A stretch of 64,000 nucleotides of DNA from Undaria pinnatifida (taxonomy: Eukaryota > Sar > Phaeophyceae > Laminariales > Alariaceae). A program made the position numbers and the translations under genes. The notes beneath the pieces were generated by a model that was not told the DNA's origin, searched no databases, and worked only from the letters and a program-made list of their open reading frames with translations. The stretch spans positions 11,459,511 to 11,523,510 of the forward strand of contig JABAKD010000007.1 of NCBI GenBank assembly GCA_012845835.1. The letters run 5' to 3'. Each line of letters opens with the position of its first letter. The stretch's first letter is position 1. This document shows, piece after piece, positions 16,371 to 64,000 of the stretch.

Positions 16371-16374
16371 CTCT

Positions 16375-18438: not shown

Positions 18439-21400
18439 TCAATCTTTGTCGCGCGTGCTTGGAGGCGTTCGGAAAAAAAATGTCGTCCTAGTGTTATACC
18501 GCTGCACCAGCAGCAACAAGCTACGAGTAGCGGAAGGAAGCACACACCGGCTACAAAGTAAGTGAGTCCTACGGCAGTGAAGTCCGCACCCAACTGCTGT
18601 ACATAAAACACGCAGATGCCAAAAAAGGGGGGTACGTTAATCAACCAATCGAGACAAAAACGAACGATGCGGTCGAGAAAACAATGAACGAGTCAGCACC
18701 CAACTGCACCGTACCGTATATTACATAACACGCAGATACAAAACAGGGTTAAACGAATCAACCAACCAAAGCAGGAGAAAAAAAAAAAAAAACGGTCAAA
18801 CAAACTGAACCAAATGAATGCAACTGTCCATCTCACTTGATGATGTCCAGGTAGAGGCTGATCGACGCCACGATGTACTCGTCGTACCCCTGTGTCAGCG
18901 CAAAAGAACCGTTGATCAAACCGTCGAGGTCAGTGATCGTCAGGGGATATGCTTGGGCTTCATACGAGGGCGTCACAGACTGAAAGGATACACAGCGGAA
19001 ACATAACGGCTCCGAAGAGCGAGTTTACTACAGCTACAATTCGTATCTCATCATTGTTAAATAATACAAGGCAAAAATGTTTTTCATGCCTTCGTTTTCC
19101 GAGCCCCAATCCTATTGGACGGCAGGAGGGGCCCGCCCGCCCGCCCGCCCGCCCGCCCGCCCGCCCGCCCGCCCTCGGCCAACGGGGGGGCGGGCGGCGC
19201 ACGGCTGAAGTTGCCCCTCGCGGAACCCCCCCCAGTCCCGCCGCATCTGGGGAGGACGGGGCCCCATCCCCGGTTTAGAAAAATTGCCATATCCCTACAA
19301 CTCTAACACCCCGGGTCAACACCGCCCCACACAGTGTGGAAACCCCAATCCCTTTGGCCGATCGCTGATTGGCTGGCGCTCGTAGAGCCAGCGCCACCCG
19401 GGGAGGATCGGGCCACATGCCCGGGTCAGATATACCTCCGTATCTATAACTCCGACACCCCGGAAACAACCGAGTGCTCCGGGGTCTTTACCGCTCTGCC
19501 CGGTTTGGAAACCCCAATCCTATCGGCTGACTGGCTGGAGCGCGTAGAGCCAGCGCCACCCGAGGAGGATACGGCCCCATGACTGGATCCTAAATCCCTC
19601 AATACATGGTATTTCAACAACTCCGAAACCCCGTGGACAAAAACGGTCTTCTCCCGGGTCGACACCACCTCGGACGGTGTCGAAACCCCAACGCTGCTGG
19701 CCGATCGCTGCTTGGTTGGGGCTCGTACATAGAGCCAGCGCAACACGGGGAGGATAGCGCCCTACCGCAGGTTCTGAGATCCTTCCACGCATCTAAAACT
19801 CCGACCAACACGAAGCACGCATATCCAGTTGGCTGGCGAACGACCAAAGCAGCGTCTGCGCAGACAGGCACTACAGCGACAGCACACCTACAGCACGTAT
19901 TTCTCACATCTACTGCTCCTACGGGTCTGGGACAAATCCACCGGAGGATTAAAAGAGTAAAACGTCTGGGACGACAGTCGCGACCCCCAGATACGATGCC
20001 GTGACGAATGCAACTTCCGTTCCCTTAGGAAGCCATCTACCACCTTCGCTTGGCGCAGTCCAACAAGCAAAAATAAGGCGCACGAAATGCGCCGATTTTT
20101 GCGCTTGTACTATAAATACCAAACTGGGGAAACCGGTTGAAGAACCCATTGGAACAGGCCAGCATGGTCGCCCTTATCTCTGTGCCACTCCGCAATCAGA
20201 TTGAGTGTCAAACAGGTGTTATTATCTCTGGTAAGCGTCAAGGAATGAAAAAAAGTTGATTTGACCGCCCTTAATTCTTTCAGAGCTGGGTCCACACTTT
20301 GGGCGGGAAATGACTTGGAAATAGTACCGGATATTTTTTCAGTTCCGCAAAAAACGGCCAAGTTTCTTTTTTTTTCTATTTTGGGACGCTCTTGAACCAC
20401 GGTTTGGGGGAACATGATTTGGCAATAGTACGGGATGCACATTTGTAGTTCTTAAAGCGTCAAGTCTGTTTTTTTCTACATTGGACGCTCCTAAACCTAG
20501 TTCCGCCCTATATATTATGTAACCCATAACCACCACTGGCTTCCGCTACCACCGCCACTTCCACCGCCACCACCACCCCCACTAAACATGTCAGAAGGCG
20601 GCACTTACAGCCCTTGACTTGGCCGACGGCAACGACCGACAGCAATTTTCAAATCATTTACCTTGATGAACGCCAACCTGCTAGACTTTAGCGTGGAACG
20701 ATCGGCGTGACAACCTAAACCGTTGGACGTTTTCCCAGTTTTGACCGTCTCGGCACATATTTGCGCGGGACGTCAGAGGTACAAATTGGCGAATACCAAA
20801 AGTGGCTTGATTACAGCTGCGGCCACAAGAAATAACGCGGACAGCCGGATATTGATGATGACCAACCATGTCTGGAGACGGCAACTTGACCCCTCGACCG
20901 ACAACATCAACCATCAATATACGTGGAACTGACGCTAACTACTAGGTTTTAGTGTGGAATGCACTTTCACCCCTTGACCGACGGCATGTTCCAATGATTT
21001 ACCTTGACTGAGGCCAAAAATTCTACCCTGGTAGGTTTTAGTGAGTAAACATCGGTTTCACACCCTTGACCGCTGGATGTTTCCCCCCTGACTGACCACC
21101 TTGACTTACGCCAAAAGGGTGTAGTGTGGGACGATCGGTTGCACACCCTTGACCGCTGGACGTTTCCCCTTGACGTCTCCTGACGTCTTTCCTCGGGACT
21201 TCAGAGCGGAAACTTGGCGTTCTCAACGGCAATAACGGTACTAATAACACGCATATCACCACAAACATACCGCAGTGACAAAACCTTATCAATAGTGTTA
21301 CTGGTACGAGTGACAGCAGTACATATATCGCCTCTTTGTTCGCCACCAACGCAACACCTTCAAGCACCACCATCACCATAAAACCGTACCAAGAATGTTA

Positions 21401-24400: not shown

Positions 24401-27400
24401 CTCCGGGGGAAGCACAGGCGCACGCCGAGCGACAACAGCAAGCGTGACCCAAACTCGAACACAAACCTCAAGCCTAATCCTCCAGGTCGTTAGTATCAAC
24501 CGCGACCCAAACCAACGCCAACCCGATCACTAACCCTATGGACGCCCCCACCGACGCACCAGCCAAAAAATGCAGGCTCTCGAGATTAGGGTCAGCGCTA
24601 GGACCAGGGCTAATGGCTCACCAGAAGAGGCACAAGACAAAAAGCTCAGCTCCAATCGAAACCTCAACACAAACCGCAATCCCATACCAAACTCCAACCC
24701 TTCACCCAAGGCCTAGGGAGACCCGCCACCGCGCCATAAACCAAACCAGGCTCGAGGCTAGGGCCAGGGTAAAATAGGGCAAGGGCTGAGAACTCACCAA
24801 AAGGATGCGCAAGAGCCACCCGAGCAACACCATCAACCGCGACCCGAAAATATACCAACCTCAACACCTAACCCCAACCCTACTGATGGCTTGTTTTGTA
24901 CCAGGTACCAGGTAGTTTAGTATTCATCCTACGGCGGATAGGTAAACGTGAACCCGACGTCCACCACTCTACCACGTATGTGTCGTGTGTCGACTTCAAT
25001 ATGGTCCGCGTAACCACGGCGCTGCCGTGGCAGCGGCAGCGCTGACACTGACTAACCAATGGACCCAACCACCGCCGCGCCACGTAAACGCCTACATGAT
25101 CGAGCCCAAAGCCGCAGGGACGGAGCTAGACGCAGGCTACAGATGGGGTGGCAGCACCTCGTCCATACGCCACCGAACCACTGACTTCGCGAAATGCTGC
25201 AAGCTACGCCTCATAGAAAGTTCCATGGCTTCGCGAAAAGCTGCAAGCTAAGACCGATAAAAAACTCCATGGCTTCGCGAAATGGCTAAGACCGATAGAA
25301 AACTCCATGGCTTCGCGAAATAATGAAAGCTACCTGGTAAAGGCCCATAGGAAATTTTCATGGTTTGGCAAAATGTTGCAAGCTAAGCCCGATAGACAAG
25401 AAAAAAAATATGGCACTAATAGTAGCTATCTAATGAGCAATCAACACTAAATCTATAAACCTAAACTACAGTTTGGATCCAAAGGTTATGGGAAACTTCC
25501 CAACCCTTGCGTGATACCACGGCAAGCACAAAGCTACACGCTAGGTCCAAGCAGACCCTCCCCCAAAACGTGGGTATCAGATGTAAAGGGGGGTAACGAT
25601 CTCTGCCGGACAGGAACAAAGTTGACCAAGAACAACCACCCCTAACATACCAGAACGCCTCCTCAGTGACTAACCAGAGGAGGCACAGGAGCAAGCCAAG
25701 CGACAGGTCCAACCCCAACCGCAACCACAGCCACCAGAGGAGGCACAGAAGCAAGCCACGCCATGATAGCACACAAGGGCAAGCCAGGCCACGCCACCGC
25801 ACAGGAGCAAGCCAAGCCACGTTACCAACGGCAACCTAAACACAACCACAGCCGCAACGCTATACCCTCAACCCTGTCCCCAACCACAACCCCAACTCAC
25901 CAGAGGAGGCATAGGAGCAAGCCGAGCGACAGGAACAAGCCAACCCAGACGGTCCAGGGGTTGGCAAGAATGCCGTTGCGTACGGTGTCGCTGAGGACAC
26001 ACACCGAGCCCACGGCCACGGTGAGCAGCAGCTGCAGCGACAAGATTCCGTACACCTTGCGGATGAAACCTGATCCGTGTAAACGAGATAACATTTTCAC
26101 GACAAATCGCAGGATAAAACGAAAAAAAAGGGGAGAAAAAAAAATAAAGGAAATACTTCGGAACTAAAAGGACAGAACGAAAACACTAAAACAAAAAAAA
26201 TGAAAGAACGAAAAGAAGAGAACACTGCGAACGAAAGAACAAAACTGCAACGGACATTTATCTCCCACTTCCTACTCCGCGCAGCGACGAACAACAGAGA
26301 CCCCTCCCATGCACCTTGCAGACCGAAATCCGGCACGTCACGGTGTACCATGCACACGGTCACGAAGGAAGACCAGATCCAAACTTGACGGTCGGCGACG
26401 AAAAAGAGTCCACAGGTCTGGGGGATGACGCCTAAGACACGAGAAGGATGCACTTACTAACCCCTACAGAGCCCCGAAAAATGTCCCCATACGAATTCCA
26501 AGTTTTTTCGTCCCCAAAAGCGGGGTTCCAGTTGTGCAGGTGTTCAGGGGTACCACTTTACTAAGGGTGGCCATGGGCAAGCCTGAGGCTCCCATTCAGC
26601 ACGCAATTGCTTCGCCGTTCGTGGTAATATATCAAGTATACAAGACTTGGGCAACGGCCGCAGAGGTGCCCTTCAGGAGCTCCGAAAAAAAAAAAAAAAA
26701 GTGCAACCAGCAGAGACGTGACTCGGCCGGATTTCACGACTAATACATTAATCGGCAGTCGCCGTTAGCCAATTAGCTGACTTTACGCGGCGAGTAGGCA
26801 GGAGAAGCCAGCTGATGGCCAGCCGGCCTGCCGAATCAAGTCGGGCGAGCGAAAGGAGTCAAATCAGCTACCCCCGGCCGAGTCGGCCCCGGCCCACAAA
26901 AGCAAAAAAAATGCATCTCCCATTAAACAACCATTTCCTGCAAGTATGGAAACCCCATAAGCCGGACGGTCGGCACCTCCGGGAAGATACTAACTTCTAT
27001 TAGTCCGACTGATAAATAGTGGGTGACTTGACCATATTAGCACCGCACTCCCAATGTACGGACAAAACACGTGGATTTTTGTGATACGATTTTTTTTGAG
27101 GAGTTGGAAAATGTGCCAACTCACAGCTCTAGCAACCACATGGAAAATCCCATGGCTTACGTAGAGCACGAAGAAGAAAACAACACCACGTACACAATAT
27201 ACAGGCCCGCCAACAGACAACTCCCATTTGGAGTGAGCCTCAGATTCTTATTGCGGCACGACCCTTGAAAATCCTTGAGCGTAGGCTGTTATAAAGGATT
27301 TAGTGTTGCGCCAAAACGTGACGCACGCTACGATAGAGGCGCACCACTTTTTTCTGAGATTCCTCAATTTGGGAGCTCAAGACCTCTCCCAAAAACTGAT

Positions 27401-33536: not shown

Positions 33537-36500
33537 ATGTCTGTCCAGCTCGAGGGTTCAACAGCGACCTCGGGTACAATGCACCAGCGCCCAGACAAAA
33601 ACAGCACCAACAACGGCACCAACGACATCAACAACACGACCAACAACGGCGCCAGCGCTAGCAGTGACGCCCAGCAGCAACAGCAAGCGGGTCTGGTTCA
33701 GGGCCAGGCGTCTGATATTTGTTCTCGGTTAGGCTCCATGAACGTGGTGAGAAGTGTAAACGTGGAACAGAATAAGGAGGCGGGGAGGGAGGGGCATCGC
33801 GCCTGAAAACGGCAGAGGATGTTCCAACGAGAGGGCTGCTGCTGCTTTGGGCAGAGCTGTCAGTCGGACCGACTGAAGTCACCACCTACGGTAGTTATAA
33901 TGCGGACTAATAGCTGCCAGGTAGTCGTCTCCCGAAGGTGCCAACTATGCGACTTTTTTCGTTTCGTATATATAGGAAGAATGGTTTAATCTGGAACGCA
34001 AGTTTTCCCTCTTCGCCCCCCCGACGTGCTCCGTGCCGGTATTGTAGGGATGTGAGGATCTATGGTCATACGACTACGGCCACGCATGAATATCGAGTAC
34101 ACGCCCCCCCCCAGCCGGGGGGAGCTAATCGGCTCGCGTTGCTCGCCTGACTCAAGTCGGCAAGTCGTCTGGGCATCAGCTGGCTTCGCCAACCAACTTG
34201 CCGGCTATAGTCAGCTAGTCGGCTAACCGCGCCTTCTGATTAGCTATTAGCTGTGAATTCCTGTCAACTCACAGCTCTAGCTTTGGGCGTATCATATACC
34301 CCAATCCTGTCAACTCACAGCTCTAGCTTTGGGCGTATCATATACCCTAAGGTACCCGGTTTAAGAGCCCGTCTGAACAGCAGTTTAACGGCTCTTGTCT
34401 CGGGGCTGGTGTTTTCTCAGAGTGGTAGAGCAGTGACTCGGCAGGATTTCACTACCACCAGGGTAGTATCTAATCGGCAGGTTTCATTGGCCCTCCAAGT
34501 GACTTTAGTCGGCAAGTTGGCTGGCGAAGCCAGCTGATGGCCAGCCGACTTGCTGACTTGAGTCAGGCGAGCGGAGCGAGCCAAATTAGCTCCCCCCGGT
34601 TCGGGGGATGGGAGGGCGCCCAATGAGGCCAAAATGCATCCCACATTGAACAACCCTTCCTACAAATAAAAGAAACCAAATGAGTCGGAGAGTCGGCACC
34701 TTCGGGACGCGACTATTAATATCAGTCCGACTAATAACGAGCCGGTAAATCGCGAAATTGCACCTAAATGCCAAGAGCCCCGCCGCCACGCAACAGAAAA
34801 ATAATCGGACGCCTCATGAGGAGTTTATCGTTTGTACCAGGTATGTTGCCGTAGTACTTGCGATGTACCATGTATGTATGTCTCGGAGTTTGTGAGTACA
34901 GAGCAATTGTCTCCCTGCTGTGACGAATGGGCGCGGACAGTGGAGGTGCTGCGTGTCGATGGGCGAAAAAGCTTTGAATCACACCCAGCAGGGTCGTTGA
35001 GGTATCAGTAAGGATACAGCTGTCTTTTGTCTAGTTAATCATGGAATAGAAGTATTGCATCACGTCTAGACGGCGGTTCACCACGGGGCTGGGTGTCAGT
35101 GAATTTTTTGTAACCCGAATGCGTTGTTCGTGGCTTTAAAACGCGACATTGAAAGAGCAACAACAACGAGTAGGGAAAAAGGGCAAGCACACGCGCGCAC
35201 GTCGTGGGTCTCAGCAACACTTTGCGCTTGTCTGCCTGCTTGCGTTGTCGTTCTCTGGTCGACACGAACGCACTGCTGTGCATACTCTGCTGCTCTGCGC
35301 AGGGCCGATTGCAAGCTGTTCTTCTGCTATGCTTGAGGCTCGTCGATACTGTGGCTAACGGAGCTTGGTTTATGCCTTCGTGCTGTCCGCAAAATAATCA
35401 GGTTCAAAATAAAAAAACGAAGAAAATATAAACAAGCTAAACAGAGGCTAAAAAGCACAGTCCATGGATTTTTGCGAAAAAAAAGACTTCCCCGTCGGAA
35501 ATTAAAAAAGCAAAAGCAAAAGCAAAAGCAAAAGCAATGGCAAAAGCAAAACCCAAAGCACAAGCCAAAGCCAAAGCCAAAGCCAAAGCCAAATCGAACA
35601 CAGCGGCGGCGGCGGCGGCGGCGGCGACGCGGTGGCGGCTGCTGATAATGAGGCTTGATGGCAGTAGCCAAAACCCAATGATATGATCACAAAACCCCGT
35701 TTGTTGCAATACCGCCTATTAGTTGCATGGCCACCATGACGGCGGACACTTCAGGCATTTGGAAGAGGTGCCTATGTTTGGCGCGATCAGAGTTGGAAAC
35801 TCGCATTCACTCAAACTAATAATTCCCGAGCCTAGCAAACTTTGTCAGCCTTGAGGGCGACAGGGTGGCAGCTCGTACCGTTTAGTTCCGATGGCAGCCC
35901 CAGCGGCAGCAGCAGCAGCACCACGGTGTGATTGTGCTGCGGTCTGTATGCCGACCTTCTAGGTCGGGCAGAGCGCGTGCTTCAGGAGCAGCACTCACTC
36001 CGGCGCATTCCTGTCTCCCTCTCGTGTATTACTGTCTCTCCTCGCCTGTTTCCTGATGCATCCTCTCTTATTTTCTTGTTCCTTCCCTCTCGTTTTTACA
36101 TTTTTCACGATTTCTTATTATGTAACGCCCCGACAGCAAAACGCCTCCGGGGTAACGCCAACGCCGACGGCGGCGCCGGCATCAGGGGGACCAGGGGAAG
36201 CGGGTGACAGCATGGAAGAGGAGGCGGGAGCGTCTTCTATCGGCCCGGAAGAACGGAGGCAACTCACCGTTGCGGCCATGTCGCCAGAAGACATTGTGAG
36301 GAAAACGACTTTACTTTACATTGGTGGTTTTTCCATAGTGTCGGCACGTGCCAGCCGGCAACACCGACAGTCTTTTGGACCTCGGCCCTATTGGGTACTG
36401 GAACGATCCTAGTTGATTTAGCGAGTCACGGTCGCACCAAGCATTTTCGCCGGTATTACTACCGGAGTCATCCCACGCTACAGATGCAGCAGAAGTTTCT

Positions 36501-39500
36501 GAGCTCGCAAGATATGGAGCTCAATGTCTCAACCAAAACATGGCTTCGGACACACGTTCGCGCAACCCTACCAACTTTTTCATGCGCTACTCCTACACTA
36601 AAACTAAGATACTCGTCTAGTTATCCTACTACCCTATAGACTTTAATAGCCGGTCGCCCTGGTGGCGTATTAGGTTATCCTCGAGCCTGGTATAGGTCAG
36701 TTTCGTGAGTTCGAGTCCCGCCGAGTGCATACTCGTAAACATTCGTTCCGACTTTTTTCTTGTGCCCAAATTGACATGCGGAAAGCGCGAGAGCGTGAGT
36801 TAGCAACACTCGATGAAAAATCGACGAGCAGCGGGATTGCTGAACCCTATGTGCGATAAAAAGTTGAAGGCAAGAACCGGGGGGAAGAAGAGATGATACC
36901 TGTGGCCGCGGCTTGTCCAGAAACTGGAAAGTAGAAGAGTTTGGGGAAAAAACAAACAAAAAAAACACACTTGAGGAGCTCAACCAATCAGAAACGTTTG
37001 GTCGAGAAAATGCAACCTTTACCGCGGGATTATTCATCGGCAAGCAGGCATTATTCCACCGGCACTACAGAGAGACCCCAGCTACTTCTCCTTGTTTCCC
37101 CGCAGCTCCGACAAGGTTTGAACCGGGGATGGTGTTGCAGTACCGACCGTTAGACGCACCGACTCACCGAACGACTGACGGATTGATGTGTTGATCTATC
37201 CAATGTCTGACTGGACCAGAGCAGCGGTGGCATCTACCAGCTGCCAGCCATGTTCCCGGAATGAACTGTGAAAGTAGAAGGTTTGCTTTGAAACTCCCCG
37301 CCACCGTCGCCGGCCTTGTTAGGCTTACTGTAGAGTTCTCCAAAATTTTCGGCCAAATCTAAGATATACTGCAAGGTTTTATCCCTCAGCAGTCTAGGAT
37401 GATTACCGACCGTTTTCTACAACCGAGGTACCGTACCGACCGATCGCTCGGCTGACATACCTACATGTTGTACCAAATGTTCCGACGAGGACATCCCGAG
37501 GGGTAGCTACCGGTTGCCGCCATATCGCCGGAAGATATTATGAGATTTGAAAAATAAATGAATAATAAACCCTCCCACAACTTCAGCAAGAGTTCTGTTT
37601 TGTTACCGACCGTTAAACAGACCCACTGTTCACATTTTCTTTGCTTGACCTTTTTTTCGTTGTCGCTTCATTTTGGTCTCATAGGGGGCAAGCGGCAGGC
37701 TTACCGACTTTTTGTTACAAATGGTCTGGTGTGCTGGCTTGCATATTGTTTTTTGCGGTGTGTGCATTGCGATTGCCATTGCATGGCTAAATTACGCTGC
37801 TGTATTTTGCGATGCGTATCTCTGTCTCGTATTTTGTGACATACAGAGCTGGTCTCTCTAGAAGGCATGGGCACGGACACTGGCTGTGCTGGGTGTAGAT
37901 GGGTGGAAACATCAGTTTAATGTGAACAACGCACGCACACACCGACTTGCAGACCGGCTTAAACGAACGAGCTATTTTGCCGATCAAAACTTGTGCCATT
38001 TTTTCATTTTTTCGAGCGAAGTTTCGCCCGAATTTTCCGCTCTTTGACCGAGGTTTCGACCGACTGCCATCACACAGGTGCTTTGTGTGGATGTAGGCCC
38101 CGAGATGGCGAGCGAATGGGCGGGCACAGGACCTGGGGGGTCCGCGACGTCGAGAATGAGGGTGGTACAAGCAGCGCTGTCAGGGTTCGTTCGCCGAAAG
38201 GCTTCTTTCAACCAAAGGGTGAGTGGTTGTTGTTGTGGCGGTGGCGTTGGCGGTGGCGGTGATGGTGGCGGTGGCGGTGACGGTGGCGGTGACGTTGGCG
38301 GTGGCGGTGACGGTAGCGGTGGCAGTGGTGGTGGCGATGGCGGTGGCGGTGGCGGTGGCAGTGGTGGTGGTGGTGGCAGTGGCAGTGGCGGTGGTGGCGG
38401 TGGCGATGGCGGCGGCGGTGGCGGTGGCGGTGGTGGTGGTGGTGGCGATGCTGTTGGTGTTTGTGTTGGTGTTGGTTGTGTTGATGGTGTTGATGGTTTT
38501 GGTCGTTCTGCTGGCGGTGGTTTGTGGTTGGATTATGGTAGTTCCAAGCACAAAAATCGGCACGCTTCGCGCTCCTTGTTTTTCCCTTTTTTCTAATAGG
38601 GCTGCGCGAAGCGAAGGTCGTAGATGGTATCCACGGAAACCATTGCGTTCATGGTGGTACTGCATAAAAAAGCAGCCGCTTTCGTCCCAGGCTCGTTGGA
38701 GCACTACTGTAGAGGTACCTGGTACCTGGTAGGTGTGAGACGTGCTGTCGCGCTGTGGTGCCTGTCTGCGCTGCTGCTGTTTGGGCCGTTTGCCGGTCAA
38801 CGGAAGCGCGGGCTTCGTGTTGGGGTGTCTATAATCCGTTCGACGAACAAGCAGCATCCTTTTCAACTGGACTAGTAAAAATGATCACGGCTTGATCATC
38901 ATTGCATTGGTTGTGGACTACGGAGTAGATGCCTTTTCCCTTTTTTCGACACCACAGAGAATGGTCTGGAAGGGACCACCACGCCGTAGTAACACCTCGC
39001 CGAGGGTACTTTGTTTTGCTCGCGGACGTTACAATCGCAGGTACGTGTATATTCAGCATGCAGCAGTAGGTACCCGTACCGGTTCGTGGGTGGGTTGTGG
39101 GTCGGTGGATGGGTGAGAACACGTTATTGCACTCCGCTGGAGGTGCACCGTACCCGTGATCGTGTTTTCGAGAAAAAAAAAAGTCGAGTACGGGCCAAAC
39201 GCCTCGTTTGTGCTGGTGTATGTACCAGCTGGCTACGTACTGCTGGTACGTACTGCTGTACTGCTGTACTGCTGTAGCACATATTTGTTGGAGTGTTGAG
39301 TGGTAGGATGGGTTGGTCAGTTGGCGGTCGGTTGGTTAGGTGGGTGGGTGGCAGTCGTTTCGTGCGTCGGTGAGTGCGTTCGTGCCTGTGGGAGGTGGAG
39401 CTGTTATTTATTTTCTTTGGTACAACAGCAGTATTTTTTATCTGCGCTGTATAACCGGCCTGCTGTACATTAAGTCCGATTACGAAACAACGCATCCGTT

Positions 39501-45500: not shown

Positions 45501-48500
45501 ATTAAAAAAATGAACGATAGGCCGGTGTATCATGCAGCTCGCAAAGATGAGTATCGACACCTTACATTTTTGGAACTTACAGCTGATGTATTCGAAAGTT
45601 TTATGAAAATATCGATGGCGGTGACAGGATGACGACTACGACGATCACATCGCCGGTGAAAAGCAACAATGGCCATGATGCAATAGCCACTGTTGAGGAA
45701 TTAGTGCGGTATTAGTGCGTTTGACCACTTGCACAAGACCAATTGCTTACCCAAACTAAGCCTCATAGCACTACTTCACCACGCTTGCTCCGTCCCTTCC
45801 TGGTGTGCGTTGCCCCCGCACCCCTCCCCCGGCTACGGCCATGCACAAACTGAGTACCCCCCCCCCCCCCCCCCTGCGCGCCCCTTCCGCCAACCCAATC
45901 ACGCGAACCCAAACCCACCGCCCCCCTCCCTGTGCCCCCTGAACAATGCTACCGACGAAGCCCATTACTCGACCAGAAAGCCCGCGCGGCGATGCTGAGG
46001 AAGACACGCCGTTCGACTTCGAGGAACTCCTAGTCTGCATCGCCGAGCGATTTCCGCCACCGAGCTCCGCCGCCTCCATCTCGCGGAGGCTTGCTTACCC
46101 CGGGGCCAGCGCGGGAGCTACGTCCCAGATTCGACCGGTCGTTCGGGCGGTGGTGGTGTACGGGAGGTCTTACACCTGCCCTTTGGTACCGATGACTGAG
46201 GAAGCAAAGCAGTGAGTGAATGTAACGAAGCAGTGAGTGAAGTTGTGCTTTTTCGGGGGGTTTTGTTAGAGGTTTGGTAGGGGCGTAGATAGGGGGGGGG
46301 GTACGGGGCGGGGAGTGTATTCAGTTTGAGGATGGCTGTAGTCGTATGGCCATAGACCCTCGCATCCCTACTATGCCGGGACGAAACACGTCGGGTTTTC
46401 ACCAACCAGACATGCATTGCTTGCACTAGGCGCGAAGCGCCGTGAGGTGTGCGGCGAGTCGGGGGGGGGGGAGGGGGGTAAAGGGCAATAGTGGGGGGGG
46501 GGGGGGGGTAGGGGAGGAGTGGGGGGGCGTGGGTGGGACAGTGGCGGTGGGCAGGGGTGGTGGTGGTGTACAGTAGGTTTTGTACCTGTCCTTTTCGTGC
46601 CGATGACCGAGGAGGCGAAATAGGGAGGAAACGTTTTTTTGGGGCGGTAATTGGGTTGGGGTGGTCAGGGGGTGGGGTAGGGGGGGCGGCCGGGGGATAT
46701 CGGGGAGTAGGAGAGGTGCGCAGTGCTGTGGTGTGTGGGAGGTCTTACGCCTGCCTTTTGGCGCCGATGACCGAGGACATGAAGAAGTAAGTGATTTTTT
46801 GTTTTTGGGTGAGTGGTTGGACGGGTGATGGGTGTGGGGTTGGAGGTGTGGGGTGAAGGTGTTGCTCGGGGGAGTCGGGGAAGTGGGGCGGGGCTGGGGC
46901 AGGGAGTCGTTGTGTTCTCCTGTCGATCATGGGGTATTGCCCGGGGAGCTGTTATGTTTGCTCTGTCGACAGGGTGTATCCAGAGAGTCTGTTAAAACGC
47001 ATCTACTGTCGGTATGTAGGCTTTTGCTTACGACAACGGTGCAGTACTTGCTCGCTATTGAGCTCCCTTAGCGCGTCCAAACCAAACCCCGTATACTCAA
47101 AATAGACCACTTAGGAAACATTCACCGAACCGCGTTTGTACATCCTGAGTTCCACAAGTGTCTGATTTTGTCCCCGTCAAAGCAGGGTATTCAGGTTCCG
47201 ATCACAGGACAGCGCTGTGTCTTATGTCTTAGTCTTGATGACCCCTGCATTAGCAGGGGAGCAACCGACTTGTTATATTCGCGAGGGTATACACATCCCG
47301 TGACACGTGGGATGGAAGTATCACACCCAGAATGCGTATGGGCTTGGGTTAGTAATTCGGTGTTGCTGCTGAAGTGCATTTTTCGCTCACCCGAATATGC
47401 TCTGTCGCAATCTTTGGTAGGATTTCGGTTGCGCGCGATCTGCTCCCTGATATCTCTGGCAGCTGATATGAGGTTTCTTTTTCGTATCATCTTAGCGGAT
47501 ACGAATATCATACATACTTTTATAAGTATCTGGATGTAAATTTGATAACTAAGTTGGGTACAGTCATACTCACACACCTTAACCTCTTTAGAAATGCACG
47601 CCGCGTCCGAGTGCAAGTTAGTCGGAAGTTGTGTGGAATGATTTTCGGAGTTGTGGTGTGTTACCGACTGGCAAAAAGGCTTCCGGAGGACAACGTACTT
47701 GGAGTTAGAGGAGTTAGCGAGGCATTCGTTTTAATAACGCCACGGTACGGGTGGACACCCCCAATACGCTGCCGCCGGATTGGGGCCACACGCGCAAGTG
47801 ACTAGATGCACCTCAGTCAAAGGGTCCTTGACCATGATTTGGTTGGTGTAGTGTAAGAGTGGTATAGTGGTGCAGTATCGCGAAAACGAAACGCCTTAAA
47901 GGTCGCTCGCGTGGTAAGCGCCTCTGAGCCGCTTAAAAAACAGAGATATCTTGCAGTAACGAAAGAGCAAGCAATCCTTACATTTGAGTGCAAAGTGGCA
48001 GGTGTTGCTCGGACCGCTCTTTGCGATGTTGGTGACTTGAACCTGAACTTTCTGTTTCGGGAACCCTTTTTTGTTTAGCCTCCAACCCTCTCCTGCTGTC
48101 GTCCGCTGGGGCTGTTTTTCGGAATCTTTCGTGCTTCTGGTGAAAATCTTACCTGCCATATAGTATGGTATGTGTTTTTACAAGCCCCCCCCCCTTACGC
48201 GATATGGGTGACATAGAATTTCGGAACCCTCTTTTGTCGTTTTTTTTTTCTGTTTCACCTCCAGCCCTCTCCTATCGCACGGTCGCTTCTTCCTGGACTG
48301 CATCTACGTGCACCGCAAGCCATCGGAGGAGGGAGTTGTCTGCCAAGAGGCGTTCGATCTCATCGCCGGAATGGAGACGTTCGGCGGCGGGAGCGTGAGT
48401 TTTCGTTCGTTTTTGGCGTAAAATTTGCTGCACGCAAAGCCGTATTGAAGCGTTTGTTTGGTTAAGAAGAATTGATCTATGCGTTAGTGTCATTGTCCAG

Positions 48501-51500
48501 ATCTCCTCGGCTTCTGCAAACCTCCTCAAAGGAGAAAGTTGGGTGCCAACAGGCGCTCGATCACATCGCCGGAATCGACCATTTCGGCGGCGGATTCAAG
48601 ACTTTTCGTTTTTCTTTTCGTGTTTTCGTTGCAGGAAAAAAAAACAGAAAACATGTTGAGACCTTCTTTTCGTTTGTGTGAATGACAATTTTGCATTATT
48701 GTCAAACGTGGTAGGCCTGTATAGCTTCACGCCTTGTGGAGTTGACGGCTGGTCCTTTTGGTTTTGTGTGCCAACGCATTCCGTGGCTCTCTTCGTGTGT
48801 AGTTTGAACGTGACGGCCGCCTTTTGTTTTTCGCGGTGGCGACGCGGCTGGTAGCTCTTTGTTCGTGAGCCACCCCGCACCATCGTAGGGGTGCACGACA
48901 GATTCTAAGAATTTTCTGAGCTCCTAACATTATAGCTCGAGTTTTCACCCGAAACATGATTTGGAAGGCGTTCGTTCGCGCAACCCGACCAAGCTTGCTA
49001 TGCCTCAGTCCTAAAAACAACCATTGTACTCGTGAAACTAGCATGCTAACCGGTCTTTCCTCACTTGAAGAGCTCAACCGGGCAGTTACATTATTAGTTA
49101 ATCCAACAACTGCAACGCCCACCGTGGGATGACGCCGATGTAGCTTGAAGGTTGGCCGCTGTCGTTTTGTTTGAAGTGTGTAGACGTGGTAAAGCCGCAC
49201 TTCGTTTTACTCGCTCTGTCTGCTTGTGTCCTCGTGCGGTTGGGACCGCCTATCAGACGCGCACCTCTCGTTTTTCTCGCTTTTTTTTTTTCTCCGTTGC
49301 GCATTGACGGCTGAACTTCTTTTATATTTTGTTGGTTGCTGATTATTTTAGTCAAGTGGAGCTCGCTTTTTGGCTACCGGGACGTCCGTTGGCGTCGTCG
49401 TGCCATTTCTGACGACAAAACGTTGTTACGACGCCTGCCTTCGTCTGCGACGCTCGTGTTTTGGAATTTCGAATTGATTGCTGCCTTTTTATTTATTTTG
49501 AGTGTGCCAACGTTTGTCAGACCGGTGGACCTTGTTTCTTCTTCTCGCCGCCCTTTTGTGCCGCCCGCGGCTTTGGGTTGCCCGTCCGATGTGTGCCGCC
49601 ATCGTACTGTAATATGCCGCTCGTTTGATCGCTTCACCTGCTTTGATTGGGGAATCTAACGTTATTGTTTGCTTTGAGTGATTGTGTTAACGTGCTTATG
49701 TGGCGCCCCTTTGCCCTCTCTGCCCTTTTTTTTTCGTGGGGCCTTTGGGCCGCCTGTGCGAAGTACAGCAGTAGCACCCGTTTCATGGCCCCCCTCTGTC
49801 TGAGATTGGAGTTTTTGGCGGCTGCCTTTTGTTTGTCAAGAGTGTAACCAGGCACTCAGGTGGCGCTCGGTTCATTATTTCCAGTCGTTTGGGATCGACG
49901 TCTAATTTTTGCTTCTGAATGTGCCAACACGTTCACTCCTCTTACTACTGCCCGCTCGATCCCGCACTGATTAATTCCAACGTAGTTTGCCACCAATAAC
50001 GTTGCTGCGGTTCCATCGTTTTTCTCTTCGGCTGTTTGCTCCGTCGGGATTCGGGTCGGCCTCCTTTCCGACTTGCAGACCTCATCTGCGTTCTCATGTG
50101 ACGCTATTATGCACGCTCGGTCTGTTTTGTGTTTTTCGCTTTTGTCTGTGTTGTTCGTCTCGCCGTGCCTTTTGGGTGAACCTGTCCGACGTGCGACGTG
50201 CAGCACTCGTACTTTCTGGAGTGCGGGCACAACCTGCAGCGGTTCAACTCCAGCATGGCTTCGCTCCTCGCCCACCCGGTGCAGGTAATTAACGCACATA
50301 CACATGAAGTACCCATACAAGGTTCCCCTTCCGACTGAGGCTGGTTTGGTTTCCGGAGGGGGGTGTCGCAGATGGAGGAGAGGGAACACAGGCATCCCTA
50401 TGAGCCAAATAGATCAGGTACATCACAAACACGTATAATGAACACTAAAGGAAAAATTCCGTGCAAGTAACTGGGCAAGTAACGGCGACTAATTCTAGCT
50501 AGAACGAGTTTATGGTGCAGTTTATGTCGTGGGCTGTAATTTTTCAGTTTTTTTGCTATTTAACAGCTTGTGTAGATGTGTTGACGCTGATCGGCTCAAA
50601 TGTCACCGCATTTGGACCATTTTGCACCGCGTTTGGCTCAGATTGTGCCGCGATGGGCTCAGATTTCACCGCATTTGGCTCAATTTGCGGGCTATTTACC
50701 ATGTATAACACGAAAAATGTCATTAAAACCTAGTAAAAGATAGTCAGCCACCGCGCAAGCAACCGGGCAGGTAACAAGTTACACCGACTATTCATAGTTA
50801 AAACGACTTTATAGTTTAGTTTATATTGCGGGCTTCGATATGTCAGTTTTTCCTACATAACAGATTGACTACATGTGTTGGCGCTGATTGGCCCACGTTT
50901 CACCGTATCTTGAAGCAGTTTGCGCCGCATTGGGCTCAACCTGTGCCGCATTTGGCTCAGATACCACCTCATTTGGCTCAGATAACGCCGCATTTAGCTC
51001 AGGTTACGAGCTATTCACCAGTTATAGCACGAAAATATGTAATAAAACTAAGCCAAAGTTGATTAGCAACCGCGCAAGCAACCGAGCAGGTAACAAGTTA
51101 CACCGACCAGTCTAAACGAGTTTTTTCTTTGATTCTTATCGTGGCCTGTGATGTGTAAACGGAATCAACCGCTGAGAGCGTCTATATAGCAGCGTGGGTA
51201 GGCACGAGTCGATGCGAGTGGACGAGGGGAGAAATGGCGGGAATCTTCCCGCAATAGAGATGAAGGCACCTGCCGTGGTGGGGAGGGGGGAGGAGAGCCT
51301 GCTTTGTGACCCCGGATCTGAGTAACGTTTAGGGAGCGAAAAGGAGAAAGGAAGATTGCAAAGACAATAGAAGCAATGAGCGAATAACAAAACCTGCGTT
51401 TGACACCTGTGATCAAGCTTGCCCAAAGGCTCGTTAAGTGATACTCCGTAAGAGCTCCTGCGAGTTAAGTTGGAACACGAAGGTGGCGATCGACACCCCG

Positions 51501-52460
51501 ACGGAACAAAAAAGAAACAAAAAAACGAAAATCACACGACGAAAAGCGTATCGTAGCCGATTCTCGCTCGATATACATCAGTCACTACGGGTGACCGAGG
51601 AGTGTCATTGCGCGCAGCTTGCAAATATGAGTGTGCCAGTTTCCAAGAGTTCAAGTTCATAGTCGCAAATACTCGTAGTTTTTTTTGTTTTCAACGTTTT
51701 TGGGATATCCTTTTTTTTTTTCTGCGGTGTTCCCTTAAGGCTCTTTCCAGCGCTACTATGTACCAGAAAGCGTTTTTTTTGTAAGTGGTCAGCAGGGGAC
51801 GAGCGGGAGCGGCACGGTGAAGCAGTAGCCCCTGTCGGAAAAAAAAAAAAGTGCATCCAACTCGACTCCCGTTCAATATGGTGTAATCACTCACCAGTGC
51901 GTCCCCTTTTTTAACGCTGCTTGTTTTGCCTTGACAGTGTAACCGGCGTGTCTACGATACAAGCACAAACAAAAAGGGAAGATATATATATATAATATAA
52001 ACGAATCACCATTTACCGCTACGGCCATTTTTTTTTTTCCGTTCGATTATCGGCGCTTCTGTCACCGCGACTGCCATAATGGGAAGATTTTGTCAAAATG
52101 TTGGCACCAACGGGTGCGTGAGAGCACGTTGAACCAGCAGCCGCTGCCGGAACAACGACAACCACACCCAGAAGAGGTTGTCGAACTCGACTCTCGTTCA
52201 ATATAGTGCTCATCACACACCATTGCCCGCCCTTTTTTTTCCGTGCGGTTGTTCCTTGATGCTGTCCCCAGCGTGACTACCAGGAGGCGTTTTTCGATAA
52301 GCTGGCATCAGGGGGCGCGGGAGGGCACGTTGAAGCAGCTGCACCCGCCACTGGCGGTGGCGGGGGCGGAGCCAGTGCATCCCAGGGCGCACGCATTGCG
52401 CGACCTAATTCAGCGGGATCGAACTCCTCGCAAACGGCGCCGGGAGCTGCTCTCGCGTGA
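33537..52460 (+). CDS. BABAM1: BABAM1/MERIT40-like subunit of BRISC and BRCA1-A complexes, 8 exons
   Basis: Scaffold subunit that in animals and plants holds the K63-specific deubiquitinase complexes BRISC and BRCA1-A together through a VWA-like domain. Exons: 33537-33746, 36137-36295, 38078-38218, 41651-41749, 45961-46211, 48265-48394, 50204-50284, 52272-52460. All are GT-AG and phase-consistent, giving 419 residues (human 329). Residues 1-123 are a low-complexity Asn/Gln/Ser/Gly-rich tail. The VWA-like domain opens with MSPEDIVLCVDVGPEM (about 118-133), matching CPEKVIICLDLSEEM in human MERIT40, followed by HRFALCTLGNG (from 171), DFEELL, VVVYGRSYTCP, FFLDCIYVH and SSMASLLAHPVQ. As in MERIT40 the metal-site motif is degenerate. 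The ATG at 33537 is in frame with a long exon 1; whether an upstream non-coding exon exists cannot be seen. The acceptor of exon 5 (45960/61) is weak, and the C-terminal Gly/Ala/Ser tail depends on the phase chosen for exon 8. Exons 2, 3, 5, 6, 7 and 8 have decayed intronic copies. Confidence 0.91.
33874..34275 (-). mobile_element. MITE-like family E in BABAM1 intron 1
   Basis: Reverse orientation copy with ACTCAAGTCGGCAAGTCG and TAGCTATTAGCTGTGAATTC near its end. It includes an insertion around 34020-34100. A 48-bp direct duplication (CTGTCAACTCACAGCTCTAG and so on) follows at 34261-34350. Confidence 0.6.
34433..34740 (+). mobile_element. MITE-like family E, inverted partner of the previous copy
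   Basis: GTGACTCGGCAGGATTTCAC to TCAGTCCGACTAATAACG. With 33874-34275 it forms an inverted pair separated by about 160 bp. Confidence 0.65.
35503..35640. repeat. (AAAGCA/AAAGCC)n and (GGC)n microsatellites in BABAM1 intron 1
   Basis: Hexamer run at 35503-35593 followed by (GGC)n at 35602-35640. The repeated minus-strand frames (Phe/Ala, Leu, Gly runs) are artefacts. Confidence 0.9.
36462..36640 (+). mobile_element. MITE family F fragment
   Basis: Starts GTCATCCCACGCTACAGATG, continues TTTCTGAGCTCGC and TTCGCGCAACCCTACCAAC, then is lost before the adjacent SINE. In BABAM1 intron 2. Confidence 0.5.
36648..36958 (+). mobile_element. tRNA-derived SINE in BABAM1 intron 2
   Basis: Sense-oriented copy. 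Box A in GGTGGCGTATTAGGTTATCC (36661-36680), box B in GAGTTCGAGTCCCGCC (36707-36722). Body CGCGAGAGCGTGAGTTAGCA, and a tail ending in GGGGAAAAAACAAAC. Confidence 0.75.
37020..37200 (-). mobile_element. Second tRNA-related fragment
   Basis: On the minus strand, GTCGGTGCGTCTAACGGTCG, then TACTGCAACACC and CCCCGGTTCAAACC resemble a tRNA D-arm, a GCA-type anticodon region and a T-arm box B. The acceptor stem cannot be closed, so it is a tRNA-derived SINE or a tRNA relic rather than an active gene. Confidence 0.4.
37506..37545 (+). pseudogene. Decayed copy of the BABAM1 exon 2 end
   Basis: GCCATATCGCCGGAAGATAT matches the exon 2 end GCCATGTCGCCAGAAGACAT at 36275-36294. The donor GTGAGG has become ATGAGA. 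It lies 1.2 kb downstream in intron 2. Confidence 0.7.
38235..38470. repeat. (GGTGGC)n array starting just after the BABAM1 exon 3 donor
   Basis: An impure GGTGGC/GGTGAC/GGTGGT array of about 235 bp starts 16 bp inside intron 3. It is open in several frames, but the exon 3 donor at 38219 and the phase match to exon 4 exclude it from the mRNA. Confidence 0.9.
39981..41140 (+). pseudogene. Four decayed copies of BABAM1 exon 3 with attached GGTGGC-rich spacer
   Basis: Copies of the exon 3 end lie near 39981-40050, 40386-40460, 40913-40975 and 41078-41140. Each retains parts of GGTGGTACAAGCAGCGCTGT and CGCAAGGCTTCCTTCAACC. Most are followed by GGT/GGC-rich sequence, just as the true exon 3 is followed by a GGTGGC microsatellite at 38235-38470. 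None keeps a full donor. All lie in intron 3. Confidence 0.7.
40460..41320. repeat. G-rich purine-biased stretch in BABAM1 intron 3
   Basis: Interleaved with the exon 3 ghost copies. Runs of GGGGG, GTGGTGG and GAGAGGGGG dominate the plus strand, giving false Pro/His-rich minus-strand frames. Confidence 0.7.
42585..44230. repeat. 300-320 bp tandem repeat in BABAM1 intron 4, about 3.5 units plus outliers
   Basis: TGTCACTTGACACTG occurs at 43401 and 43719 and TGTCACTTGGCACTTG at 44023 (318 and 304 bp apart). Units share AGCAGCAGCAGyGAGAGGTA, GCAGGCTCCGATCAAAGCAA and TGCTGCTGGGCGGCAGGAT. Diverged units lie at 43090-43330 and 42585-42700. Confidence 0.85.
44990..45350. repeat. ATGAATTGT and GATGATG-type short repeats in BABAM1 intron 4
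   Basis: 45000-45085 is built from TTGTATGAA nonamers. 45140-45340 is rich in GGTGGTGG and GATGATG motifs. 45845-45875 has a poly(C) run just before exon 5. Confidence 0.75.
46541..46622 (+). pseudogene. Decayed copy of the BABAM1 exon 5 end
   Basis: Resembles the last 80 bases of exon 5 (GTGTACAGTAGGTTTTGTAC against GTGTACGGGAGGTCTTACAC, then CCGATGACCGAGGAGGCGAA). The position of the donor has become AATAGGGA, so it has lost splicing ability and reads into a stop. Confidence 0.75.
46724..46786 (+). other. Candidate in-frame cassette exon in BABAM1 intron 5 (third copy of the exon 5 end)
   Basis: This 63-bp block is a diverged copy of the 3' end of BABAM1 exon 5. It keeps a CAG acceptor at 46721-46723 and a GTAAGT donor from 46787. 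Its reading frame (AVVCGRSYACLLAPMTEDMK) aligns with the exon 5 end (VVVYGRSYTCPLVPMTEEAK). It would join exon 5 and exon 6 in the correct phase, since it needs one base from the left and leaves two. It would add 21 residues without a stop. Inclusion in mRNA is an inference. Confidence 0.45.
48035..48612 (+). pseudogene. Decayed copies of the BABAM1 exon 6 region on both sides of the exon
   Basis: The block at about 48035-48150 repeats the acceptor side (TTTCGGGAACCCTTTTTTG, then CCTCCAACCCTCTCCT) seen at 48225-48280. The block at 48497-48595 repeats the exon body: GGCGCTCGATCACATCGCC against GGCGTTCGATCTCATCGCC, then TTCGGCGGCGG. The true exon 6 (48265-48394) lies between them. The downstream copy has CCAG at its left but no usable donor. 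Confidence 0.65.
48880..49135 (+). mobile_element. MITE family F
   Basis: About 255 bp from CACCATCGTAGGGGTGCACG to TGCAACGCCCACCGTGGGAT, imperfect terminal inverted repeats. Internal text TTCTGAGCTCCTAAC and GGCGTTCGTTCGCGCAACCC recurs in other copies. It lies in BABAM1 intron 6. Confidence 0.65.
49200..49795 (+). pseudogene. Decayed copies of the BABAM1 exon 7 acceptor region in intron 6
   Basis: Segments near 49205-49270, 49530-49605 and 49700-49790 resemble the acceptor side of exon 7 at 50150-50215. Shared elements are CGCCGcccTTTTGtG, then CCTGTCCGACGTGyG, then a CACTCGTACT-like start. Intron 6 also repeats a TGTGCCAACG block near 48766, 49501 and 49918. These look like units of a roughly 200-bp degenerate tandem array leading into exon 7. 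Confidence 0.5.
50455..51120. repeat. About 300-bp direct repeat with nested 20-bp repeats in BABAM1 intron 7
   Basis: Two and a bit units: CAAGTAACnnnnnACACCGAC, ACGAsTTTATrGTnnAGTTT, ACCGCGCAAGCAACCGGGCA. Inside each, GCCGCATTTGGCTCAGAT recurs four to six times. Confidence 0.85.
51711..52170 (+). pseudogene. Two decayed upstream copies of BABAM1 exon 8
   Basis: Blocks 51711-51841 and 52020-52160 align with 52230-52350, covering the T-run, the acceptor and the start of exon 8. The first keeps TTTCCAG followed by CGCTACTATGTACCAG, against CCCCAG then CGTGACTACCAG. Both keep a CACGTTGAA or CACGGTGAA core and GCAGC. Each is followed by a shared AACTCGACTCycGTTCAATA segment, so the duplicated unit includes intron as well as exon. 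Confidence 0.7.
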
Positions 52461-52589: not shown

Positions 52590-52930
52590 TCTGCAATGGT
52601 TCACGTTGAAGCAGCAGCCCCTCGTAGCACCGGTCGTGGGGGTAGGAGCGGTAATAGCGCGTCCAAGGGCTTCCGCATCTCGCCACTTAGCTCGGTGGGA
52701 TCAAATTCCTCGCAAACGGCAACGTGGATCGCCCACTTGCGTGAGAAGTGCTAGGGCTTCCGCATCTCGCCACTTAGCTCGGTGGGATCGAATTCCTCGC
52801 AAACGGCAACGGGGATCGCCCACTTGCGTGAGAAGTGCTAGGGCTTCCGCATCTCGCCACTTAGCTCGGTGGGATCAAATTCCTCGCAAACGGCAACGTG
52901 GATCGCCCACTTGCGTGAGAAGTGCTACAG
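52590..52930 (+). repeat. Downstream copy of exon 8 amplified into an 87-bp triplicate
   Basis: From 52590 the sequence again resembles exon 8 (CACGTTGAAGCAGCAGCCCC, then TCCTCGCAAACGG). From 52668 an 86-87 bp unit occurs three times almost identically, starting at 52668, 52754 and 52841. One frame stays open through all three, encoding a 29-residue repeat (RASASRHLARWDQIPRKR and so on). It lies past the BABAM1 stop, so it is probably 3' flank or UTR. Confidence 0.8.
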
Positions 52931-54560: not shown

Positions 54561-54589
54561 TGGATAGTTATGCACATTTCAACGACGCA

Positions 54590-55336: not shown

Positions 55337-55340
<4 letters not shown>
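54590..55340 (-). repeat. Tandem array derived from the MSP-gene exon 5 end, about five copies
   Basis: A degenerate unit of about 110-170 bp recurs near 54670, 54785, 54895, 55050 and 55155, the last copy being the real exon end near 55340-55380. The shared plus-strand text is CTTGCGGCAGyTTyCCGGGC, then GTGGAGTCTTCC and GGTGCTCAATACACCGTT. The array lies just downstream of the last recognised exon and may be intron or 3' flank. Confidence 0.65.
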
Positions 55341-62564
<7,224 letters not shown>

Positions 62565-62887
62565 CTGCAGGGCAGCGTGACACACCCGCGGAAAGCAGGT
62601 TCGTAGGTGTCGTGTGACGTAAACGAAGAATGACAAGGTTTCGTATTATCAACGGCGAGCTCGGTTTTGGGAGGTGATGGCAGCGAACCGTCCCCGGGTT
62701 TGCACAACGAAGCATATAGCCACCGTCAGTGAGTTGGTCAGGATTCCGGGTCAAGGCACACCCCACAGAAGGCAAGCAGGAAGGTGTACGGTTGGCGAAA
62801 AACAACAATTTTTCGTTTTTCTGTAGAGGAGAGGTTTATTCCAAATACGCACTAGATATGAGGCTGGTGCGATCAGCATTGTGTTTT

Positions 62888-63403
62888 AAACGCATGCTAC
62901 GATAGACTGATTCTACGATAGCCCCCCCCCAAAACCGGCGGTTTTCTTTAACGAACGTTTCATGGCTGCTCGACACGAGGAAGGATGCTATGAAAAGAGT
63001 ATCTGCATATATTATCTTGTTTGCGGAGGACTATCGAACGATGACGTCCGCGTGGTAAGGGGGGCCGTATTTCAGGAGATACGGCCAGGCGCTGGTTTCA
63101 AAACCGGCGATTTCGTTAAAGAAAAGTTGGGGGGGCTACCGTAGAACCACACGATAGAGGAAAGAGCAGTTTTCGTCTGAAATGGTTTCTGAACTACGGG
63201 GCTTCTTAACCCAAAATCGTCGGAAATTGGCAAAAAAAAATATATGATTCTCGTTGTGTACCTAGGCCATGGGATTATTCATCCTGTAGCAGTTATGTTT
63301 TTCTCCAAATCGTTTTTTTGGGGTTAAAAAAGGGACATGTCTCAAGCTCCCAAATTGAGGAACCTCATAAAAACAGTGGTGAACCTCTATCGCAGCACGC
63401 GTC
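62888..63403 (-). mobile_element. MITE family A interrupted by MITE family B
   Basis: The left end ACGCATGCTACGATAG (62891-62906) and the rest of the element (63158-63403, ending GCAGCACGCGTC) are separated by a family B element. The two A parts together are close to 261 bp. Confidence 0.75.
62907..63150 (+). mobile_element. MITE family B, 244 bp, with 7-bp target duplication
   Basis: Terminal sequence ACTGATTCTACGATAGCCCC at the left and the complementary GGGGGGCTACCGTAGAAC at the right. The sequence ACGATAG occurs on both sides (62900-62906 and 63151-63157), while a complete family A copy has it once at this point. That indicates a 7-bp target-site duplication. Confidence 0.8.
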
Positions 63404-64000
63404 TGGGCAAAACGAAACTTGTGATGGTGGGGGATGATAAGTCGACGAAGCGGCCAGGTCGGGGCAAGACAAGTCAATGGGTTTCACATCGGAGGTACAC
63501 CCTAGGAAACTATGGTTGAATTGTCCCTAGTGCCGGTACTGATTTGTTTTCCAGCAGTGCCAGCGCGCAGTCGTTCCTTGGATGGGGAGGGGTTGATAGT
63601 ACACAATCCCTGGGTTTACGCCACGAACGACACTGCCACCGTCAGTTGGTTGCTGGGGTTGACCTGCAGAGCCAAGAGACAACCCCTCTGCGGATTGTAC
63701 GTACGCAAGATGACGGTAGCAAATATTGGAGCGAGTTTGTTTCAGTCCATTCAATCAAAAAACGAATTTTACTATGCAACATGTATTAGGGCTTGTGAGG
63801 AGTCGTGGCCAGGCCTGCGTTTCGCGTCACGAGGTTTCAAATCCACGAGGTTCGGGTACGATCGCGTCGGACCAGGCGGGTTTCCGATATCACTGGTGGG
63901 GATCAGGTCATCCGGACCCGACCTGACCGGCGAGACGTCATTCAATCCGTGAAAACCCTTGAGAATTAAGTACTTGGTGTGAGGATGGTGTGAAAGGGTG

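What the first reader, a model, noticed from the sequence alone, without database searches (positions are those of the whole stretch)
18439..63690. Ghost exons: three unrelated genes have decayed tandem copies of exon-intron junction blocks in their introns or flanks
Nearly every stretch of tandem repetition close to an exon contains a piece of that exon. BABAM1 exons 2, 3, 5, 6, 7 and 8, TMBIM exon 2 and MSP-gene exons 1, 4 and 5 all have from one to five diverged copies nearby. The copies include intron sequence, keep exon order and orientation, and usually have lost a splice site. Tandem duplication across exon borders is a known route to intron gain and to alternative exons. Here it looks like a genome-wide habit and a main cause of intron growth, which I have not seen described in this form.
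Basis: partly seen in the sequence, partly recalled or inferred. Interest (0 to 1): 0.88.

Follow-up and report, generated by a model that had tools for sequence, protein, structure and literature searches.

The report
Decayed tandem copies of exon ends
Introns in this genome really do hold worn-out copies of pieces of neighbouring exons, but they look like by-products of a general habit of copying short stretches of DNA side by side, with no clear sign that exons are hit more often than other DNA.

Summary
Of 18 exons tested in the window, 8 have a same-strand diverged copy within 4 kb that beats all 100 shuffles; 0 of 18 have an inverted one. Confirmed: BABAM1 exons 2, 3, 5, 6, 8, TMBIM exon 2, one exon of the third gene; TMBIM exon 5 is marginal. 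Not confirmed: BABAM1 exon 7 and three other third-gene exons. In kinesin genes elsewhere in this 511-Mb genome 4 of 30 exon segments also have a ghost. Non-exon segments of the same loci have local direct copies about as often: 12 of 48 exons against 12.4 expected; a modest excess is not excluded. Ghosts are mostly dead: 14 of 20 carry a frame-breaking gap, 5 of 20 a new stop, and third codon positions differ 2.02 times as often as first and second, above the simulated value for a freely decaying copy (1.35-1.58) but far below a constrained one (over 5). Tail copies lie downstream and head copies upstream in 11 of 11 exons, as head-to-tail duplication requires. Best reading: exons caught up in a general background of short local direct duplication, a known kind of event.

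The parts
25901..26069 (-). TMBIM exon 2 (source of ghosts)
   Evidence: gene model; direct score 32.5, z 11.6
25675..25720 (-). ghost of the TMBIM exon 2 tail, 89% identity, GT kept, one frame-breaking gap
25735..25787 (-). second ghost of the TMBIM exon 2 tail, 83%
18985..19024 (-). marginal copy of an internal piece of TMBIM exon 5 (z 4.2)
36137..36295 (+). BABAM1 exon 2
   Evidence: z 6.2
37502..37539 (+). ghost of the BABAM1 exon 2 tail, 76%, GT lost, one new stop
38078..38218 (+). BABAM1 exon 3
   Evidence: z 19.1
39979..40039 (+). ghost 1 of exon 3 tail, 85%
40390..40449 (+). ghost 2 of exon 3 tail, 82%, frame intact
40909..40965 (+). ghost 3 of exon 3 tail, 77%, GT kept
41067..41133 (+). 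ghost 4 of exon 3 tail, 75%, new stop
45943..46211 (+). BABAM1 exon 5 (5' border uncertain)
   Evidence: z 16.7
46555..46619 (+). ghost 1 of exon 5 tail, 81%, GT lost
46720..46794 (+). ghost 2 of exon 5 tail, 86% over its aligned part, 5' splice site GTAAGT present
48265..48394 (+). BABAM1 exon 6
   Evidence: z 17.5
48516..48593 (+). ghost of exon 6 tail, 79%, GT lost
52272..52460 (+). BABAM1 exon 8 (last)
   Evidence: z 26.8
51761..51832 (+). ghost of exon 8 head, 79%
   Evidence: intron part z 3.0
52066..52148 (+). ghost of exon 8 head, 73%, new stop
   Evidence: intron part z 4.1
52602..52744 (+). ghost of exon 8 tail, 75%, running into an 87-bp tandem array
52666..52927 (+). 87-bp x 3 array (97% matches) whose unit matches the exon 8 tail
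62445..62564 (-). exon Me of the unnamed third gene (3' border arbitrary)
   Evidence: z 20.9
62669..62742 (-). ghost 1 of exon Me head, 70%, frame intact
   Evidence: intron part z 3.8
63555..63662 (-). ghost 2 of exon Me head, 74%, new stop
   Evidence: intron part z 4.3

Best explanation
The genome undergoes frequent short (about 30-400 bp) local duplication in direct orientation, in exons and elsewhere alike. When a duplicated block spans an exon end, the copy still attached to the exon body goes on being spliced and stays under selection; the other copy is left on the intron side and decays at or near the neutral rate. Shown: the copies, their orientation and side, no detectable exon preference, loss of frame or splice site in most, the codon-position pattern. 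Inferred: that each ghost began as a head-to-tail duplication (replication slippage or unequal exchange), since many copies now lack matching flanks and cannot be told from short templated copies pasted nearby; and that no ghost is used in mRNA as a rule.
For: Direct bias: 47 direct against 2 inverted self-hits at under 500 bp in the window; in 308 kb of window plus other loci, 116 direct and 14 inverted pairs of at least 85% identity and 30 bp within 2 kb. No clear exon preference: 12 of 48 exons against 12.4 expected from non-exon segments of the same loci, 10.1 after subtracting the inverted rate (P 0.62 and 0.29). Geometry: for the 11 exons whose ghosts reach or nearly reach an exon end (T2, B2, B3, B5, B6, B8, Me and kinesin segments in L029, L032, L034, L037) tail copies lie downstream and head copies upstream in all 11; chance 0.0005 if sides were random (coordinates; probability). 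Decay: 14 of 20 ghosts have a frame-breaking gap and 5 of 20 a new stop; mismatches 70/442, 68/449, 139/444 at codon positions 1, 2, 3, ratio 2.02, bootstrap over 12 exons 1.81-2.53 (which corrects for intron bases in the L032 segment and for a true stop codon). Simulation gives 1.35-1.58 for a neutral ghost of a constrained exon, 5.1-5.6 if the ghost is constrained too, 1.0 if neither is. Clean young head-to-tail duplications exist, e.g. L026 5047-5472, L014 9224-9628.
Against: The ratio's interval lies wholly above the simple neutral-ghost value, so some copies may have been constrained for part of their life, or third positions (GC3 0.71) may mutate faster. Four of 20 ghosts have neither frame-breaking gap nor new stop. 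Without locus L036 the exon count is 12 of 45 against 10.5, or 8.2 after subtracting inverted (P 0.34, 0.10). Among young direct pairs, by my count of the rows, 30 of 70 clusters are 'gapped' (copy much shorter than its distance) against 16 plain tandem, 6 intermediate and 18 arrays; the youngest exon ghost (L029 3993-4053) has unrelated flanks and a spacer of untraced origin, which one plain tandem duplication does not explain. Some local direct repeats belong to a dispersed family (window about 19157-20109).
Confidence: 0.78

Rival explanations
1. Ghosts are alternative or mutually exclusive exons kept by selection.
For: Four of 20 ghosts have neither frame-breaking gap nor new stop (B3g2, Me1, K29, K32). 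BABAM1 exon 5 ghost 2 is followed by GTAAGT, and the kinesin ghost in L029 has a pyrimidine tract, an AG, 48 nt and GTAAGA (sequence), so it could be an in-frame cassette exon.
Against: 14 of 20 frameshifted, 5 of 20 with new stops, codon-position ratio 2.02 against over 5 simulated under constraint; most are exon ends only, not whole exons.
Confidence: 0.07
2. The copies are short templated insertions (break repair copying nearby DNA) rather than head-to-tail duplications.
For: Gapped clusters outnumber plain tandem ones, 30 to 16 (my count); the 25-bp flanks of four such pairs (L011, L024 twice, L019) are only 12-56% identical to each other; the L029 ghost sits next to an unrelated spacer.
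Against: Such insertions should often be inverted and lie on either side of the exon (general knowledge, recalled); here 116 of 130 close pairs are direct and 11 of 11 exons have the ghost on the tandem side. Tandem duplication followed by deletion gives the same end state.
Confidence: 0.3
3. An exon-targeted process (for example splicing- or transcription-coupled) makes junction duplications and drives intron growth.
For: 8 of 18 exons in the window; several introns carry more than one ghost. With inverted background subtracted and L036 left out, 12 of 45 exons against 8.2 expected, P 0.10.
Against: No significant excess at exons over non-exon segments of the same loci; coverage by direct repeats up to 2 kb apart is 21.5% in exons, 15-18% in introns, 18.3% in the whole window.
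Confidence: 0.1
4. Chance similarity or a dispersed repeat overlapping the exons.
For: The 19157-20109 repeat in a TMBIM intron is dispersed; exon B1 is low-complexity and matches many places.
Against: 0 of 100 shuffles reach the scores of the 8 exons, inverted strand shows nothing; no ghost block and no exon except B1 matched 274 kb of other loci.
Confidence: 0.03

Closest known systems
Tandem exon duplication (Ivanov and Pervouchine 2022, PMC9013439; abstract, Results and Discussion sections read)
   Same: Exons searched against their own gene show unannotated same-gene copies in introns.
   Different: There the interest is expressed copies; about 2% of human and under 0.1% of fly and worm exonic bases have a copy of at least 80% identity. 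Here a small hand-made set gives 354 of 9186 exonic bases (3.9%), by another method and in a selected sample, and the copies are mostly dead.
[quoted passage not shown] potato RdRp case PMC4974935, abstract read)
   Same: Duplicated blocks crossing an exon-intron border; in potato the duplication spans the border of an intron and the following exon, as in the L029 kinesin ghost.
   Different: No new intron is shown here; the copies sit inside existing introns.
Ubiquitous internal gene duplication (Gao and Lynch 2009; seen only as a reference-list entry in PMC3443670)
   Same: By its title, internal duplication of gene segments is common in eukaryotes.
   Different: Not read; rates cannot be compared here.
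Exon shuffling in brown algal ROCO genes (PMC11378527; abstract and two sections read)
   Same: Intragenic tandem duplication of short exons in a group of algae that this genome may belong to (my inference, untested).
   Different: Those exons are functional, 72 bp each, in phase 2 and with sites under positive selection.
Tandem repeats in the Ectocarpus genome (PMC12477816; abstract start and passages read)
   Same: Passages report long introns and tandem repeats spread rather evenly over site classes, which fits a process blind to exons.
   Different: No exon copies are mentioned in the passages seen; the species of this window is unknown.

Membership tests
Tandem exon duplication | same-strand copy of an exon or exon piece within the same gene, above chance | tested here: met
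   12 of 48 exons direct, 0 of 48 inverted at score 19 or more; shuffles run for the 18 window exons only
Tandem exon duplication | copy lies on the side predicted by head-to-tail duplication | tested here: met
   11 of 11 exons with end-reaching ghosts
Tandem exon duplication | copies head to tail with matching flanking intron | tested here: inconclusive
   flank similarity in 5 of 13 comparisons at z 2.5 or more; none in the youngest ghost
Functional alternative / mutually exclusive exon | reading frame and splice sites kept, purifying selection | tested here: not met
   14 of 20 frameshifted, 5 of 20 new stops, ratio 2.02; 4 of 20 are exceptions
Functional alternative / mutually exclusive exon | inclusion in mRNA | not testable with these tools
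   no RNA data
[quoted passage not shown]
   the L029 kinesin ghost has the anatomy; no relatives or RNA
Dispersed repeat / transposable element | copies at unrelated places in the genome | tested here: not met
   no match of 14 ghost blocks in 274 kb of other loci, which excludes only common repeats; whole-genome search unanswered

The most novel reading that the evidence does not exclude
This genome has an unusually active local copying process that leaves short same-orientation copies, often separated from their source by unrelated spacer, at about one recognisable cluster (85% identity or more) per 4-5 kb in the 308 kb examined. Because exons are held constant, ghost exons act as built-in clocks that would let the rate of this process be measured from one genome, and rare copies with splice sites present (L029 kinesin, BABAM1 exon 5 ghost 2) are raw material for new exons or introns.
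Probability: 0.25. Interest if true: 0.6.

Novelty: new member of a known kind. Interest (0 to 1): 0.38.

Why it matters
Segment duplication across exon borders is a proposed source of new exons and introns. A genome where about an eighth (4 of 30 kinesin exon segments) to nearly a half (8 of 18 exons of this window) of exons have a visible failed copy nearby would let the birth and death of such copies be counted, and the codon-position test helps to separate dead from living copies without RNA data. It also warns that exon copies may stand out because selection preserves the exon.

Tried and rejected
Exon enrichment: not found, a modest one not excluded. Ghosts as selected alternative exons: rejected as a rule. 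Detecting exons in 19 random 10-kb stretches and window 1-18300 by codon usage plus Pfam: 184 candidates, 145 printed, 105 scanned, 5 families matched in at most 7 members, too few to use. Explaining the L029 ghost as one plain tandem duplication: its spacer matches no upstream intron (score 12.0 against 11.6+-1.4 for shuffles). Literature: eight searches; the terms ghost exon, exon relic, decayed exon, exon fossil and exon remnants gave 9 papers, 8 listed, none on this pattern by title and start of abstract. Organism: not established; long introns and about 50% GC recall a brown alga, which is recall only.

Two of those stops were not the ghost's own (a true stop codon of BABAM1 exon 8; intron bases inside the L032 profile match), and the L032 gaps lie in intron; one search gives 14 and 5. 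I also added the count without L036 and for that reason moved the odds slightly (best reading 0.80 to 0.78, exon-targeted rival 0.08 to 0.10).

Full report
Setting. The window is part of an unnamed 511-Mb genome of 68 contigs (C56:11459511-11523510). Two genes are certain: TMBIM on the minus strand (six exons, 32612 down to 18833, Pfam Bax1-I 3e-40) and BABAM1 on the plus strand (eight exons, 33579 to 52460, matching BRISC and BRCA1-A complex member 1 chains at 1.6e-15). In my models 12 of 12 donors are GT and 10 of 12 acceptors AG; the 5' borders of TMBIM exon 3 (an AG lies 9 nt further in) and BABAM1 exon 5 are uncertain. The third gene has no Pfam name and only approximate exons.

Is it there? 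Each of 18 exons was aligned locally to its own 4-kb flanks after masking simple repeats, on both strands, with 100 dinucleotide shuffles. Eight exceed every shuffle on the direct strand (T2, T5, B2, B3, B5, B6, B8, Me; z 4.2 to 26.8), none on the inverted strand. T5 is marginal (an internal 40-nt piece about 3.1 kb away) and is left out of the geometry count. BABAM1 exon 7 and exons Ma, Mb and Mc of the third gene do not pass.

Is it genome-wide? Four of the 30 have a direct copy at score 19 or more (L029 4137-4367, L032 4177-4536, L034 652-831, L037 922-1176), none an inverted one; no shuffles were run for these. Their borders are profile-match borders, not proven splice sites.

Is it about exons? 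Non-exon segments of the same lengths were tested in the same way (overlapping draws; unmodelled exons may be among them). In the window 39.8% of 600 have a direct copy at the same score and 15.5% an inverted one; in the kinesin loci about 104 of 600 and 4 of 600 (rates, summed); in 19 random stretches 20.8% and 8.9% of 760. Stratified by locus, with window 18-64 kb as the window stratum, 12.4 of 48 exons would be expected to have a direct copy, or 10.1 after subtracting the inverted rate; 12 were seen. Without L036, whose non-exon rate is 63%, it is 12 of 45 against 10.5, or 8.2 (P 0.34, 0.10). Exon bases in direct repeats up to 2 kb apart are 21.5%, the whole window 18.3%, introns 15.2% (BABAM1) and 17.5% (TMBIM). 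So exons are hit about like anything else; a modest excess is not excluded.

How common is local duplication? At under 500 bp distance, direct repeats cover 15.5% of 60 kb of window and 7.5% of 190 kb of random stretches, inverted ones 0.3-0.4% (periods up to 13 masked). Among pairs of at least 85% identity and 30 bp within 2 kb in 308 kb there are 116 direct and 14 inverted; by my count of its rows the direct pairs fall into 70 clusters: 16 plain tandem, 30 gapped, 6 intermediate, 18 arrays.

What happens to the copies? In 20 ghost alignments (T2, B3, B5, B8 and Me have several; the array copy B8d was dropped as a repeat of B8c) 14 have a gap that breaks the frame and 5 a new stop; B3g2, Me1, K29 and K32 have neither. 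Mismatch rates are 15.8%, 15.1% and 31.3% at codon positions 1, 2 and 3, ratio 2.02 (1.81-2.53); without T5 it is 2.00, without the kinesins 2.01. A simulated neutral copy of a constrained exon gives 1.35-1.58, a constrained copy 5.1-5.6, two neutral copies 1.0. The copies are therefore mostly dead, with room for a constrained phase or faster mutation at third positions, since the interval excludes the simple neutral value.

Geometry. A head-to-tail duplication spanning an exon's end must leave the free copy on the intron side: tail copies downstream, head copies upstream. This holds for all 11 exons with end-reaching ghosts, probability 0.0005 if sides were random. Flanking intron similarity is detectable in 5 of 13 comparisons at z 2.5 or more.

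What is unclear. The youngest exon ghost (L029, 51 of 53 bases identical) is a 61-bp block with unrelated flanks and a 75-bp spacer that matches nothing nearby above shuffles (shuffles were run against the upstream side only). A single plain tandem duplication does not give this; tandem duplication plus deletion, or a templated insertion, would. It has a pyrimidine tract and AG before, and GTAAGA after, 48 nt, so it could be an in-frame cassette exon; only RNA data can tell.

Known or new. [quoted passage not shown] The density here, 3.9% of 9186 exonic bases with a copy of at least 80% identity, is higher than the about 2% (human) and under 0.1% (fly, worm) in PMC9013439, but methods and sample differ and this window is richer in direct repeats than the random stretches. 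Reported brown algal exon shuffling (PMC11378527) concerns functional repeats. I judge it a new member of a known kind.

Noticed in passing
L029 3993-4128: 61-bp near-identical copy of a kinesin exon head followed by GTAAGA; a possible 48-nt in-frame cassette exon or intron-gain intermediate.
   Followed up: partly
window 46720-46794: Ghost of BABAM1 exon 5 tail followed by a consensus 5' splice site GTAAGT.
   Followed up: partly
window 19157-20109: Locally repeated block in the last TMBIM intron that is also a dispersed family: the 2001-base query gave 108 matches from 40 scored candidates, identity 66% and up.
   Followed up: no
G000:C2:16034374-16037637 and 16063521-16066784: Two kinesin loci whose three listed matches have identical scores and the same 29,147-base offset: a recent segmental duplication or an assembly duplicate.
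   Followed up: no
window 3513-4674: Neighbouring tandem arrays of 238-bp and 95-bp units at 94-96% matches.
   Followed up: no
window 43326-44227: 305-bp unit in 2.9 copies, 88% matches, in BABAM1 intron 4: a large intronic tandem duplication with no modelled exon in it.
   Followed up: no
window 59176-59511: 336-bp AAC microsatellite.
   Followed up: no
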